The notes under the pieces: generated by a model
Seen by the model: the letters and a program-made list of their open reading frames with translations, nothing else
Told to the model about the DNA's origin: nothing
Databases searched by the model: none
Origin: Candidatus Gastranaerophilales bacterium
GTDB taxonomy: Bacteria; Cyanobacteriota; Vampirovibrionia; Gastranaerophilales; Gastranaerophilaceae
Reading direction: 5' to 3'
Length of the DNA stretch: 64,000 bases
Assembly (NCBI GenBank): GCA_947589425.1
Contig: CANQAV010000001.1
Location: 248,001 to 312,000, forward strand
In this document: positions 46,743-54,791 of the stretch, in pieces
How positions within the stretch are numbered: position 1 is the first letter of the stretch
Layout: each line of letters opens with the position of its first letter
Translations under genes and position numbers: made by a program

Positions 46743-47519
46743 ATGAAAAAACTTTTAATTATAATATCGGTTTTAATTATATTCGTTTTGGGTATTGTTC
46801 TTGCCCTGAATACAAATTTCAACAAAAATCAAACAATTGAGCTCAAATCAAATGTTGAAGGGAAGATAGTTGAGCTTTTAATCAGCGAAAACTCACCCGT
46901 AAAAAAAGGAGAAATAGTCGCAAAAACAAATACCGAAGAATATGAAAAAGAGCTTGATGAAGCCCAAAAAAAGCTTGATGAAGCACAAAAGGAATTAAAA
47001 ATTTCATCGGAAGATTCAAAAAAAATCAATGATGCGCTAAAAAAAGCAAAAGATGAACTTGATTACGCCCAATCAAATCTTGAAAATGCAAACAATGATT
47101 ATGTAAGATATAAAAACGATTTTTCAGACGGTGTTGTTACTCAAAAAGATTTAAACAATGCGCTAAAAAATCTTGAAATTGCAAAAGAACAATACAATAA
47201 AGCTCAAGAAAATTTGAATAATGTTAAAAATTCTTATCAAAATATATCCAAAAATAATCCCGATAAAAACGAAATTGATGAGCTTTTAAAACAAGTTGAA
47301 AATGCTAAAATCAAACTTTCCGACACAACGATAGTATCTCCTTATGACGGCACGGTTTTAAAATTAAATGTTAAAATCGAAGATAATATTAAAGAAGGGG
47401 ATACAATCGCCGTTATTGCTTTAGACGGGAAAGAAACTCTTTTTAAAATTTTTAAATTTGAAGTTGTAAAAGTTAAAAAAGGTCAAAAAAGCACTTTTGA
47501 AATCAACCCTCAAAAGTAG
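46743..47519 (+). CDS. HlyD-like membrane fusion protein
   Basis: A 258-residue inner-membrane-anchored adaptor. It has one N-terminal TM ('KKLLIIISVLIIFVLGIVLA'), a first lipoyl half ('SNVEGKIVELLISENSPVKK' followed by GEIVAKTN), a long coiled coil (about residues 75-185, with 'LDEAQKKLDEAQKELK' heptads), then the second lipoyl half ('TTIVSPYDGTVLKLNVKIED'). It is short: beta-barrel and membrane-proximal domains are minimal. No ABC transporter, RND pump or TolC is adjacent; the next gene is the autotransporter. AAAGGAA precedes the ATG. Confidence 0.85.
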   Translation: MKKLLIIISVLIIFVLGIVLALNTNFNKNQTIELKSNVEGKIVELLISENSPVKKGEIVAKTNTEEYEKELDEAQKKLDEAQKELKISSEDSKKINDALKKAKDELDYAQSNLENANNDYVRYKNDFSDGVVTQKDLNNALKNLEIAKEQYNKAQENLNNVKNSYQNISKNNPDKNEIDELLKQVENAKIKLSDTTIVSPYDGTVLKLNVKIEDNIKEGDTIAVIALDGKETLFKIFKFEVVKVKKGQKSTFEINPQK

Positions 47520-47582: not shown

Positions 47583-50195
47583 ATGGTGTTACGGGGTATT
47601 AAGCATAACAACTTTTTTCTTATATTGCTCTTTTTTATATTCACAACATTGCGCACAAGTGCAAATGAAGCATTTGAAGAATTTATGGAACAGTTTCAAA
47701 ACTCCGACAATTCAAAAATCGAAATAAAAGAAAATCTTGAAGCGGAAAAATCTTTAGACAGCCCGAAAAGTAACGACATAACAATTTTTTCAACAAATGA
47801 AAATCCCCCCGCAATCGAAGGGAAAAACAACTATAGCGGAATAATACTCAAAAGAGGGCAGAATTTTAATGCTGAAAATGTTGAAATAAATGGTTTTTCA
47901 TCCCAAACGGGAGGGGCAATAAAAGTTGAAAGCGGAGCAAATATTGATAATTTAAATGCAAACTTTTCAAACAATTCTTCATTGGATGAAGGCGGGGCAA
48001 TTTATAACGATTCAACAATAAATAATATAGAAGGTATTTATAAAAACAATTTTTCACGTGCGGGCGGAGGGGCAATATACAATCATAACGAAGCAAGTAT
48101 CAAAAATATAAAAGGAAGTTTTGAAGGCAACTCCTCAACGGAATCTATGGGAGGAGCAATATCCAATTTCGGAAAAATTGAAAATGTTGAAGGTAATTTT
48201 ACAAATAATACCGCTGAAATGGGCGGAGGGGCATTTTCTAACGCAGGAGAGGTTAAAAATCTTAAAGGAAATTACGGCTCTAATAGCGCAGGATTAATGG
48301 GAGGCGGGATTTTGAACACGGGGATTATTGATAATATTGAAGGAAATTTTGAAAATAATAAAACATTCTATGACGGAAGTATCTACGCAGGAGGCGGGGC
48401 AATAGGAAATTTTTTGCCGGGGGAAATAAAATCGCTTTCCGGCAGATTTGTAAATAATTATTCGCAAAGCAGAGGCGGGGCAATATATAACAGCGGAAAA
48501 ATGACTTTAGATTCTCAAAATAATGAAATCTATTTCAGCAAAAACAAAGATTCCACGGGAAATAACGCAATATATAATTTTGACGGGCAAATAGATATGA
48601 ATGTCGGAGAAAATAACATTACAATAAACGACAAAATAGACGGCAACGGTAAAAATTCAATAATTAACATAAAATCCCCGAATGAAGAAACCGAAGGCAA
48701 AATTATAATAAATAATACCGTATCAAATAACACAATAAATATGTATTCGGGCACAATAAAATTTTCAATAAACGAACAGGAAGGCGAAAAATTTGAAGGA
48801 AATTTTGACCATAATGTCGATTTTAACTATTGGGGCGGGAACATTGATTTAGAAGACGATATTATCAAAAACACAAACCTCGGAAATTTAACCCTTTATA
48901 ACGATATGAATTTAAAAATAGACGGAAATTTAATGGAGCGCACAAGCGATACCCTAAGCGTTGATTCTTTTACCTCTAATGACCATAAGATTAATATTGA
49001 AGAAATTCATCCTCTTAACTCCTGCAGGGAAATGCATTTTAACATTTGTCCTTTTGATAAAAATATGCCTCTTGAATTAAGACAGGAATTGGCAAATTCG
49101 CTTGAATATACAGGCTCTGATATAGTAGAAACGCCATTATATAATTACCATACAAGATATATTCCGGAAGCGGGAGTCTTTAATTTTTGGCGGGACGGAA
49201 CAAATGATTTCAGCCCTTCGGTATTAGACGGGGCGGTTGCAAGCCAGCTTGGCGGTTATTTAGTTCAGCTTAATTCTTATGAAGAAGCTTTCAGGAATAT
49301 GAATATGTATATGCTTCTTCCGAAAAAAATCAGGCTGTCAATGAAATTTGGCGCTAAACTTGCCTCAAACAATTCAGATAAATATCCGATATATCAAAAT
49401 TTTCCTTATCAAAACGAAAACATCTGGTTAAGACCATATTCGATATTTGAAAAAGTGCCCTTAAAAAGAGGTCCTGAAGTTTCAAATACCATATACGGCT
49501 CATTTTTTGGAAACGAGTCCGAAATGAAAAATTTAAGAAAAGGATGGCATTATATATGGAGCCCGTATGCGGGATATAACGGCTCGCACCAATCATACCA
49601 AAACATTAATATACATCAAAACGGAGGAACTTTGGGTGCTGTTGTTATGACATATAAAAACAACTATTTTTTGGGCGCAACATTAAATATAAGCTCAAGC
49701 AGCGTTAAAGCGCATAATACCTTTGGCAAAGATAATTTTAATATGCTTATGGGAGGGGGAGCCGTAAAAACAGGATATAATTTTGAATTCAAGGAAGGAA
49801 GATATATAATTCAACCTAACTATTTAATGTCGTATACCTTTGTAGATACTTTTTCATATACAAATTCAAGCGGGCTTAAAATTAAATCATCACCCTTAAA
49901 CGCTATACAGATTGCTCCGGGAGTGCAATTTATAGGCAATTTTGAAAACGGTTTTGAGCCGTATTTGTTTGTTTATATGGTATGGAACGTAATTGACAAA
50001 ACAAAATTCAGGGCAAATGACACAATGCTTACCAATCTTGCAATAAAACCTTTTATAGTATATGGAGTGGGAATAAGAAAAATAGTAAATTCCCGCCTAA
50101 ACCTTTATGCTCAAACAAATATCACAAACGGGGGAAGAAACGGGATTGGTCTTTTTGTCGGGGCAAGCTGGGAATTAGGGAAAAAGATGCAATAA
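47583..50195 (+). CDS. Autotransporter with Pmp-like GGA[ILV]/FxxN repeat passenger
   Basis: An 870-residue outer-membrane protein. It has a signal peptide (about 1-27, hydrophobic 'FFLILLFFIF'), a linker, and a passenger at about residues 110-332 built of eight or nine units of about 25 residues with 'GGAIYN', 'GGAISN' or 'GGAFSN' and 'FSNN', 'YKNN', 'FEGN', 'FTNN' or 'FENN'. These are the GGA[ILV] and FxxN motifs of chlamydial polymorphic membrane proteins and imply a beta-helix. The last 300 residues alternate aromatic and polar positions as in an autotransporter beta-domain, ending 'GIGLFVGASWELGKKMQ'. The start lacks a clear ribosome site. Adhesion is the inferred role. Confidence 0.82.
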   Translation: MVLRGIKHNNFFLILLFFIFTTLRTSANEAFEEFMEQFQNSDNSKIEIKENLEAEKSLDSPKSNDITIFSTNENPPAIEGKNNYSGIILKRGQNFNAENVEINGFSSQTGGAIKVESGANIDNLNANFSNNSSLDEGGAIYNDSTINNIEGIYKNNFSRAGGGAIYNHNEASIKNIKGSFEGNSSTESMGGAISNFGKIENVEGNFTNNTAEMGGGAFSNAGEVKNLKGNYGSNSAGLMGGGILNTGIIDNIEGNFENNKTFYDGSIYAGGGAIGNFLPGEIKSLSGRFVNNYSQSRGGAIYNSGKMTLDSQNNEIYFSKNKDSTGNNAIYNFDGQIDMNVGENNITINDKIDGNGKNSIINIKSPNEETEGKIIINNTVSNNTINMYSGTIKFSINEQEGEKFEGNFDHNVDFNYWGGNIDLEDDIIKNTNLGNLTLYNDMNLKIDGNLMERTSDTLSVDSFTSNDHKINIEEIHPLNSCREMHFNICPFDKNMPLELRQELANSLEYTGSDIVETPLYNYHTRYIPEAGVFNFWRDGTNDFSPSVLDGAVASQLGGYLVQLNSYEEAFRNMNMYMLLPKKIRLSMKFGAKLASNNSDKYPIYQNFPYQNENIWLRPYSIFEKVPLKRGPEVSNTIYGSFFGNESEMKNLRKGWHYIWSPYAGYNGSHQSYQNINIHQNGGTLGAVVMTYKNNYFLGATLNISSSSVKAHNTFGKDNFNMLMGGGAVKTGYNFEFKEGRYIIQPNYLMSYTFVDTFSYTNSSGLKIKSSPLNAIQIAPGVQFIGNFENGFEPYLFVYMVWNVIDKTKFRANDTMLTNLAIKPFIVYGVGIRKIVNSRLNLYAQTNITNGGRNGIGLFVGASWELGKKMQ

Positions 50196-50228: not shown

Positions 50229-51221
50229 ATGAAAATCAATTTCAATCCTAATATATATAACTTTAATCCGGTTAGAAAAAATAAAAACAGTTATTACCGT
50301 TCATATTTAACTCATCCTAATGACACCTTTGAAAAAAATATTACCAATATTACTTTTAAAGGCAAAGATGAACATCCTTTTAAACCGATAACTTACGAGC
50401 AGGCACATGAATTGTTAACGGATGACAACATTAAAAAAGTTCAACAATATCTGCTTAAAAATTGCCAAAAAATGGATGATTACACACCGGCAGGAAAAAA
50501 TCCCGTATTAAAAAATTTTATTGAAATAGAAGGAAAAAGGTTTGATGCGAAATATAATGGCGGAGGGGGAACAAAAAACACATTTTTAATTGAACATCAG
50601 GGGAAAAAATATATAGCTGCCCTTTGTTCATATACGGCAAGTGTTTCTCTGACAAAAAAAATGTGGGATAATATGCTTAAATATGAGCCCAATAATACAA
50701 AATTATTAAGAGAAAACGGTTTTAAAACCAATGATATTTCGGATATTGTTCCCGTTAAAATTGAAGGAGCAGCCTTCCCCGCAATCATAATGAAACCATA
50801 TTCGGAACACAAATTTGAAGTAGCTGATGCAAAAAACTATTCTTTTGTTAATTTGTTTGATGCAAACACAATTAACCGCGACAGAGCGCTTAAAATACTC
50901 AGCACTCCCGCAAAAGATATTGCAAAAGCGGTTAAATTCGGAATAAAACCTTCGATAGATATTGTAAATCTTTGCAAAGACAAAAAAACAGGCGAATTTC
51001 ATATCTATTTTAATGATTTGGGAGAAGATATATTTTGCGATAAAACAAAAGAAAATCCCGATAAATTAATTGAATTATATGTTTATTTAATTATTAATGC
51101 TCTTAATATGGGGGTTGAGCCGACAATGGCACAATGGAGCGATTATTTAAGCATAATACAGGCTGATACAAGGCTTAAAGATGGGCTTATTGAAATCGCT
51201 CAGAAAAAATATAAAAAATAA
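50229..51221 (+). CDS. Lineage-specific protein with weak kinase-like features
   Basis: A 330-residue protein with an 'MKINFNPNIYNF...ITFKG' N-terminus and no signal peptide or TM. A Gly-rich turn between strands ('DAKYNGGGGTKNTFLIEHQG' followed by KKYIAAL), a hinge-like 'FPAIIMKPYSEHKF' and a later 'IDIVNL...FHIYFNDLGEDI' recall the order of a protein-kinase-like fold (P-loop, hinge, catalytic loop Asn, D-x-G). The spacing is not canonical and the VAIK Lys is not obvious, so this is only a structural suggestion. The gene lies 33 bases after the autotransporter on the same strand. Confidence 0.65.
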   Translation: MKINFNPNIYNFNPVRKNKNSYYRSYLTHPNDTFEKNITNITFKGKDEHPFKPITYEQAHELLTDDNIKKVQQYLLKNCQKMDDYTPAGKNPVLKNFIEIEGKRFDAKYNGGGGTKNTFLIEHQGKKYIAALCSYTASVSLTKKMWDNMLKYEPNNTKLLRENGFKTNDISDIVPVKIEGAAFPAIIMKPYSEHKFEVADAKNYSFVNLFDANTINRDRALKILSTPAKDIAKAVKFGIKPSIDIVNLCKDKKTGEFHIYFNDLGEDIFCDKTKENPDKLIELYVYLIINALNMGVEPTMAQWSDYLSIIQADTRLKDGLIEIAQKKYKK

Positions 51222-53659: not shown

Positions 53660-53831
53660 TCATTTATTCCTTTCGGTATTATTGTATAATTTATGTTCAT
53701 TTTTTTTAATCACTCGTTTGAGTTAATAAAGAATTATTTCAAAATTTTGTAACAATTCTTAAAGAAAAAGCAATTTTTTTTCAAATAAAAACTTAATAAA
53801 TACAGGTATCTTAATTTTGAAAGAGAGTAAA

Positions 53832-54791
53832 ATGACTACATGTTACACAATCCAAAGAGGCGATTGCCTTTGGAATATTGCAAAAAGAACCTACGGTGAT
53901 AATTTAAAATCAAACGGTGATATTGCAAAAGCCGTTCAATATATAGCGGAAAGCAACAATATATCAAATCCTGATTTGATATATTCGGGAATTAATCTTG
54001 CACTTCCTGACTATAATTCAATTTTTTGTCCGGAGCAAGAAGGAACACAAGAAAATCAAAATACGCAGGAAGAAAATGCATCTCAAAATTTATCTCAAAG
54101 CGGACCGGACCAAGGAAACAGCGCTAGCCAAACTTCAAGTGCAGCTGCTAACAACGCAAATACAACAAATATTTATGAAGAATATGATAAATGGCTTGAT
54201 GACTCAGAATTGGTAATGCAAGAGTTTGAAGATTATAATGAATATTTAGAAAACAGAGAATCATATAATGTTCCCCTGACATTTGACTTTATGGAAGGTA
54301 AAGACGTAAGTGACGATGATATGTACAACGAACAAACTTTAAAAATGGGACAAGGGGAAATTGAAGCAAAAGACTATAATAAAGACGGGGAAGTTGCTTT
54401 TGAAGAATACATTACCCAAGAGCTTGACGGTGGAATTATAGATGAATATAAATCAGCAATTGCCGCAAACCCTGAACTTCAAGACGGAATTGTAGAAAAT
54501 CTTGTTGATGCATATAAAACCGCTTATAAATTATTTAAAATTATTGACAATCAAATGGGCGGAGATAATAACGGAACATTAAATGCACAAGAATTTCAAA
54601 ATTATTATGAACATTTGGATGAATATACCGGAGGCAGCGGCAATTCAGTAAGAGACGGCAAATTTGATATTGATTATGTAACCGAATATCCCGAATTTTT
54701 AACGGGACAAATTAGCTTATCCGAAGAAGATGAAGAAAAATTGAGCCAATCCGCACGCAATATTGTAAAAATACTTTTAAATATAGCGTAA
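53832..54791 (+). CDS. LysM and EF-hand protein without signal peptide
   Basis: A 319-residue acidic protein. The N-terminal LysM ('YTIQRGDCLWNIAKRTYGDN', to about residue 60) is a peptidoglycan or chitin-type glycan binder. A Gln/Ser/Asn-rich linker (about 70-110) leads to a helical region and calcium-binding loops: 'DYNKDGEVAFEEY' (about 181-193) is a full EF-hand, while 'DNNGTLNAQEF' and 'DGKFDIDYVTEY' look like further, less perfect loops. No Sec signal is present. The ATG at 53832 follows a GAGAG site; a TTG 15 bases upstream is less likely. Confidence 0.82.
   Translation: MTTCYTIQRGDCLWNIAKRTYGDNLKSNGDIAKAVQYIAESNNISNPDLIYSGINLALPDYNSIFCPEQEGTQENQNTQEENASQNLSQSGPDQGNSASQTSSAAANNANTTNIYEEYDKWLDDSELVMQEFEDYNEYLENRESYNVPLTFDFMEGKDVSDDDMYNEQTLKMGQGEIEAKDYNKDGEVAFEEYITQELDGGIIDEYKSAIAANPELQDGIVENLVDAYKTAYKLFKIIDNQMGGDNNGTLNAQEFQNYYEHLDEYTGGSGNSVRDGKFDIDYVTEYPEFLTGQISLSEEDEEKLSQSARNIVKILLNIA

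What the first reader, a model, noticed from the sequence alone, without database searches (positions are those of the whole stretch)
47583..50195. Chlamydia-Pmp-like GGA[ILV]/FxxN autotransporter in a cyanobacterial relative
The passenger has eight or nine units in which GGAI/GGAF and FxxN alternate at about 25-residue spacing, followed by a barrel-like C-terminus. This pair of motifs is the hallmark of chlamydial polymorphic membrane proteins, which are adhesins. Finding it here points to a surface adhesin in a presumed gut commensal lineage. Seen: the repeats and the overall plan. Inferred: adhesion and beta-helix fold.
Basis: partly seen in the sequence, partly recalled or inferred. Interest (0 to 1): 0.62.

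Follow-up and report, generated by a model that had tools for sequence, protein, structure and literature searches.

The report
Pmp-type autotransporter in gut Gastranaerophilales
The gene encodes a surface protein that threads its own repeat-built stalk through a barrel in the outer membrane; its repeats resemble those of chlamydial adhesins, but it belongs to a large family of its own in gut relatives of cyanobacteria.

Summary
The ORF at 47583-50195 (870 aa) has eight GG[AG][IF] sites at 25-31-residue spacing, seven of them following an [FY]xxN; a shuffled passenger gives 0.16 canonical GGA motifs on average (7 observed). It passes TIGR01376 (18.4 bits, cut-off 15) and TIGR01414 (42.2, cut-off 16), misses the PF02415 cut-off (16.1 against 20.6) and has no PF03797 match. 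AlphaFold2 (mean pLDDT 89) gives a beta-helix, a helical plug and a 12-strand barrel. The barrel superposes on NalP, EspP and AIDA-I translocators (Z about 30, 1.8-2.2 A), the helix on pertactin. It is a type Va autotransporter with a Pmp-type repeat, but not a chlamydial Pmp: no Pmp middle domain and no cysteine in the repeats. Pmp-type repeats outside Chlamydia, including a full autotransporter in Akkermansia, were already published, so the kind is known. What looks unreported is its family: one barrel subtype in 115 of 146 sampled genomes of its taxonomic family, joined to very different passengers, and nearly absent elsewhere in the phylum. Adhesion is inferred, not shown.

The parts
47583..50195 (+). 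CDS of the autotransporter, 870 aa plus stop
   Evidence: Open frame; NCBIfam hits; 47% full-length relative G077/L009
47583..47663 (+). Probable Sec signal peptide, residues 1-27 (RGIKHNN, then FFLILLFFIFTTL, then TSA)
   Evidence: Sequence inspection only; low-confidence segment 1-25 of the model; no signal-peptide predictor was available
47862..48578 (+). Pmp-type repeat region of the passenger, residues 94-332, FxxN/GGA rungs of a right-handed beta-helix
   Evidence: Motif positions; TIGR01376 over cut-off; AF2 strands, block pLDDT 87-98; superposition on pertactin and beta-helical lyases
48588..49202 (+). Membrane-proximal passenger without GGA motifs, residues 336-540, irregular beta-helix; possibly autochaperone-like
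   Evidence: AF2 model; alignment with pertactin reaches residue 540; autochaperone role is inference
49215..49292 (+). Linker helix, residues 545-570, expected inside the barrel pore
   Evidence: AF2 helix 545-570; conserved QLGGYL.QLNSY..AFRNMDMY; aligned with NalP/EspP/AIDA-I from residue 536-544 on
49419..50174 (+). Twelve-strand outer-membrane barrel, residues 613-864
   Evidence: 12 long strands; TIGR01414 675-852; NalP Z 31.9, rmsd 1.8 over 268 residues; EspP and AIDA-I Z 30
50178..50192 (+). Short C-terminal end GKKMQ after the last strand; many relatives carry a lysine-rich tail of 22-36 residues here instead
   Evidence: Comparison of C-termini

Best explanation
The gene encodes a cell-anchored type Va autotransporter. 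Sec exports it, the BAM complex inserts a 12-strand barrel, and a beta-helical passenger passes through the barrel and folds on the cell surface, leaving helix 545-570 in the pore. In each repeat rung the [FY]xxN and GGA[IF] motifs are buried and stack to hold the helix together, while variable loops between them face outward. Shown here: the sequence family, the repeat and a confident predicted fold that matches solved autotransporters. Inferred: secretion, surface display, and a role in contact with host mucosa, mucin or other cells (adhesin). It is one member of a family, largely confined to Gastranaerophilales, that joins one conserved barrel to many different passengers.
For: TIGR01414 42.2 bits and TIGR01376 18.4 bits, both over cut-off. 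AF2 mean pLDDT 89 with beta-helix, linker helix and 12 strands. Structural matches: NalP Z 31.9, EspP, AIDA-I and EstA about 30 over 536-865; pertactin 19.8 over 28-540; AIDA-I and BrkA top in Foldseek. Omp85/BamA-type protein in the same genome, 159 bits. LPS-bearing Gram-negative envelope reported for the group (PMC3787301). Of 34 relatives, 20 match PF02415 at E<=0.1 (best 1.6e-36) and 17 match TIGR01376. Four prediction methods agree on a beta-solenoid for PF02415 (PMC11795689). Buried motifs with outward loops are described for Pmps (PMC10715098). Pmps and the YfaL group are adhesin clusters in the autotransporter classification (PMC9289746).
Against: No experiment on any member is known to me. 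The window protein alone misses the PF02415 cut-off and has no PF03797 match. No hit among PDB sequences even with profiles, so the assignment rests on NCBIfam and on the fold. AF2 over-predicts beta-solenoids for perfect repeats (PMC11795689), though these repeats are diverged. Adhesion has no direct support: no ligand-binding domain was recognised and no conserved gene neighbourhood was found.
Confidence: 0.75

Rival explanations
1. Same secretion architecture, but the passenger works by binding itself (cell-cell aggregation or biofilm) and not host surfaces.
For: Beta-helical autotransporters such as antigen 43 aggregate cells (general knowledge); an Ag43 chain appears in the structural list, weakly (Z 13.6, rmsd 13.8). 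Chlamydial Pmps also oligomerise (PMC9289746).
Against: Nothing in the sequence favours it over host adhesion; nothing excludes it.
Confidence: 0.3
2. The passenger is a surface carbohydrate-active enzyme: a beta-helical polysaccharide lyase carried by an autotransporter.
For: PL6 alginate lyases align with residues 24-402 at Z 21-22.6.
Against: No lyase family in Pfam or NCBIfam. Identity is 11-14%, and beta-helices in general align this way. Passengers in the family vary freely in length and repeat type, unlike an enzyme domain.
Confidence: 0.05
3. It is a true chlamydial-type Pmp obtained by transfer from Chlamydiae.
For: Same repeat motif and same overall plan.
Against: No Pmp middle domain hit, no cysteine in residues 28-345, a barrel subtype spread through Gastranaerophilales and joined to unrelated passengers, and a motif that is widespread outside Chlamydia (PMC10715098, PMC11166332).
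Confidence: 0.03

Closest known systems
Chlamydial polymorphic membrane proteins (Pmp; PF02415/TIGR01376 repeats)
   Same: FxxN and GGA(I,L,V) repeats forming a beta-helix; C-terminal autotransporter barrel; multi-copy family
   Different: No Pmp middle domain, no cysteines in the repeats, barrel not matched by PF03797 in this protein, different phylum, own barrel subtype
Akkermansia glycaniphila Pmp-like autotransporter (A0A1C7PBX1, PMC11166332)
   Same: Non-chlamydial gut bacterium, full autotransporter with Pmp-type coils
   Different: 43 coils there against eight Pmp-type rungs here; the sequences were not compared here
AIDA-I and YfaL/EhaC type Va autotransporters of E. coli
   Same: Same barrel fold (AIDA-I Z 30, 14% identity); two of 34 relatives match the YfaL/EhaC model
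   Different: Low sequence identity; the window protein itself does not match NF007285
NalP and EspP translocator domains
   Same: Best barrel superposition, Z 30-32, with linker helix in the pore
   Different: Those passengers are proteases released from the cell (general knowledge); no protease domain was found here

Membership tests
Type Va autotransporter | C-terminal 12-strand barrel of the autotransporter type | tested here: met
   12 strands; TIGR01414 42.2 bits over cut-off 16; NalP Z 31.9, rmsd 1.8 over 268 residues
Type Va autotransporter | Helical linker joining passenger to barrel, in the pore | tested here: met
   Helix 545-570, aligned with the linker helices of NalP/EspP/AIDA-I; prediction only
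Type Va autotransporter | N-terminal passenger, usually a beta-helix | tested here: met
   Predicted beta-helix about 45-510; pertactin match 28-540, Z 19.8
Type Va autotransporter | Sec signal peptide | tested here: inconclusive
   Basic start, hydrophobic core and TSA site seen by eye only; no predictor available
Type Va autotransporter | BAM machinery in the host | tested here: met
   PF01103 at 159 bits in own genome
Type Va autotransporter | Surface display of the passenger | not testable with these tools
   Needs expression and a protease-accessibility assay
Chlamydial Pmp | Repeated FxxN / GGA(I,L,V) pairs | tested here: met
   Eight sites; TIGR01376 over cut-off
Chlamydial Pmp | PF02415 match at gathering score | tested here: not met
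   16.1 bits against 20.6; relatives score far higher, best E 1.6e-36
Chlamydial Pmp | Pmp middle domain | tested here: not met
   No hit at E<=1 in the window protein, nor among the families listed for 34 relatives at E<=0.1
Chlamydial Pmp | PF03797 barrel match | tested here: not met
   None at E<=1; 1 of 34 relatives
Chlamydial Pmp | Cysteine-rich passenger (from general knowledge of Pmps) | tested here: not met
   No cysteine in residues 28-345, two in 346-545
YfaL/EhaC autotransporters (NF007285) | Match to the model | tested here: inconclusive
   Not listed for the window protein at E<=1; 2 of 34 relatives, best 9.6e-5

The most novel reading that the evidence does not exclude
Gastranaerophilales independently run a Pmp-like system: a lineage-specific repertoire of surface autotransporters made by joining one conserved barrel to interchangeable passengers, some members switched on and off by poly-G tracts, and about half carrying a conserved periplasmic C-terminal tail (PELPKTxVTLNNIK-like) that I do not know from other autotransporters.
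Probability: 0.3. Interest if true: 0.58.

Novelty: new member of a known kind. Interest (0 to 1): 0.38.

Why it matters
Gut Gastranaerophilales are largely uncultured and how they hold on to a host is unknown. A recent classification of autotransporters names Proteobacteria, Fusobacteria and Chlamydiales as carriers (PMC9289746), so a large family in the cyanobacterial sister group extends the range and names concrete candidates for host contact. It also bears on why the FxxN/GGA rung recurs in unrelated surface proteins: as a structural solution, not an adhesion code.

Tried and rejected
Operon or partner genes: neither the HlyD-like gene upstream nor the gene downstream recurs beside relatives in 79 named loci. 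Promoter scan: no more sites than in shuffles (24 against 22.8); terminators 5 against 3.1. Poly-G phase variation of the window gene: only a C6 run at 47805, so not supported. Poly-G tracts as a special feature of the autotransporter family: rejected as an enrichment claim, 9 tracts in 291 kb of autotransporter DNA against 14 in 561 kb of neighbouring DNA, p = 0.66. The C-terminal tail as a general sorting signal: no non-autotransporter ORF in the fetched loci carries it. Solved-structure search by sequence: nothing. Literature on autotransporters or adhesins of Melainabacteria/Gastranaerophilales: nothing relevant in the held library, which is only part of the literature.

Full report
What is there. 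The ORF at 47583-50195 on the + strand reads 870 residues without interruption. It starts with a basic stretch, a hydrophobic core and a TSA site (residues 1-27), as a signal peptide would; this was judged by eye only. Residues 94-332 hold the repeats. GGA[IF] occurs at 110, 137, 162, 190, 215, 271 and 298, with GGGI at 240, at spacings of 25-31 residues, and all but the first follow an [FY]xxN. Shuffling the first 344 residues gives 0.16 GGA motifs on average and never the observed 7 in 20,000 tries; FxxN alone is a weak signal.

Family tests. TIGR01376 (POMP repeat) matches at 18.4 bits, over its cut-off of 15. PF02415 reaches only 16.1 against 20.6, and PF03797 does not match. TIGR01414, the NCBIfam autotransporter barrel, matches residues 675-852 at 42.2 bits, E 5.4e-11. 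Relatives are stronger: of 34 scanned (the window protein included), 20 match PF02415 (best 1.6e-36), 17 match TIGR01376, 11 match TIGR01414, and one matches PF03797.

Structure. With 34 sequences from the window and from named genome contigs, AlphaFold2 gives mean pLDDT 89: beta-helix from about 45 to 510, a helix at 545-570, and 12 long strands between 613 and 864. pTM is 0.68, so the relative placing of passenger and barrel is less certain than each part. Foldseek puts AIDA-I, BrkA and EspP first. The second alignment gives NalP Z 31.9 (1.8 A over 268 residues), EspP, AIDA-I and EstA about 30 for residues 536-865, and pertactin 19.8 for 28-540. AF2 can invent beta-solenoids for perfect repeats, but the same paper found four methods in agreement for PF02415 and suggests that the problem concerns near-perfect repeats (PMC11795689); the repeats here are diverged. 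The host has an Omp85/BamA-type protein and its group is described as having an LPS-bearing Gram-negative envelope (PMC3787301).

Who carries it. Named relatives are nearly all Candidatus Gastranaerophilales metagenome-assembled genomes, many apparently from animal guts judging by the isolate names; a few records labelled Clostridia or Acinetobacter are probably misnamed bins. In the window's taxonomic family, 115 of 146 genomes and 34 of 41 genera have a match at 1e-10. A barrel-only profile finds 107 genomes of that family and one more of the same order among 292 genomes of the phylum; with the whole-protein profile three genomes from other families of the class also match. Other cyanobacterial families have a few autotransporter barrels of other sorts and a few POMP repeats. 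The window's genome has four barrels: this gene, one on contig 17 whose passenger has no GGA[ILVF], and two identical tandem copies on contig 5.

One barrel, many passengers. In a tree of 85 barrels, GGA-rich passengers (up to 36 motifs) and GGA-free passengers are interspersed, and open frames carrying the barrel run from about 430 to over 5,000 residues, some of them cut by contig ends. The window protein sits in a fully supported group of 16, mostly compact members without the long tail, but on a long branch, so its exact place is unsure. Same-genus genomes listed show only 37-39% identity to it, while the closest full-length relative (47%) is in another genus, so the gene is patchily distributed.

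How it probably works. Sec export, BAM insertion of the barrel, passage of the passenger through it and folding outside, as for other type Va autotransporters: inferred from architecture. In Pmps the two motifs are buried and pair within each rung, and loops between them face outward (PMC10715098; PMC11166332); the same order of motifs and strands is seen here. Adhesion to host or to other cells is the most likely use because the classified autotransporters with this plan are mostly adhesins (PMC9289746), but nothing here shows it.

Compared with what is known. This is a type Va autotransporter by every feature that could be tested. It is Pmp-like, not a Pmp: no middle domain, no cysteines in the repeats, no PF03797 match. 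Non-chlamydial Pmp-type repeats were published for Phycisphaerae, Methanobrevibacter, Trichomonas and Akkermansia. No paper in the held library connects Melainabacteria or Gastranaerophilales with autotransporters in a relevant way, which suggests that the family expansion is unreported but does not prove it.

Side leads. About half of the relatives continue after the last strand with a lysine-rich tail of 22-36 residues ending like PELPKTxVTLNNIK. Autotransporter barrels normally end at or close to the last strand, so a conserved tail on the periplasmic side is unusual and unexplained. Both contig-5 paralogs have a G11 tract directly before the start codon, after a short leader frame that would read into the gene with 10 G instead of 11 (sequence; the frame reading is mine). 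The genome has 23 distinct G or C tracts of 9 or more, many at genes that look like glycan-synthesis genes from their sequence (not tested by family search). In the loci of relatives 23 such tracts were seen where composition predicts 0.2, but autotransporter genes are not enriched over their neighbours.

Noticed in passing
G000 contig 5, L039:6865-10290 and L039:10639-14064: Two autotransporter paralogs (1142 aa) in tandem, identical over a 3,645-bp block, each with a G11 tract just before the ATG and a short leader frame that would fuse in frame at G10. Recent duplication and assembly artefact were not separated.
   Followed up: partly
Whole genome G000 (23 sites, e.g. L154:2772, L154:3003, L159:3167, L162:2984): Unusual number of poly-G/C tracts of 9 or more for a genome of about 34% GC, many within or at the ends of ORFs that look like glycan-synthesis genes; possible phase-variable surface glycans.
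   Followed up: partly
L014, L021, L052, L056, L065 and others (C-termini); absent from the window protein: Conserved lysine-rich C-terminal tail (PELPKTxVTLNNIK-like) after the last barrel strand in about half of the family, not found on other ORFs in the fetched loci.
   Followed up: partly
46743-47519: HlyD-type periplasmic adaptor of only 258 aa (TIGR00998 covered to position 247 of 334), ending 63 bases before the autotransporter; not conserved next to relatives.
   Followed up: partly
50229-51221: 330-aa protein of no known family downstream, with an N-terminal ITFKG; an unrelated 341-aa ORF in L082 has a similar start (LTFRG). Possible shared N-terminal element.
   Followed up: partly
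53817-54791: Protein with an N-terminal LysM domain (over cut-off) and a weak EF-hand match near residue 250.
   Followed up: no
G100 contig 7, about 327305-347968: Open frame of 8,459 residues with several stretches matching the passenger profile: a giant relative.
   Followed up: no
L098:1649 and L101:5453: Two homologous long autotransporters with G9 and G10 at the same place in the 5' region; the reading frame leading into the gene differs. Suggestive of a frame switch, but the true start codons are uncertain.
   Followed up: partly
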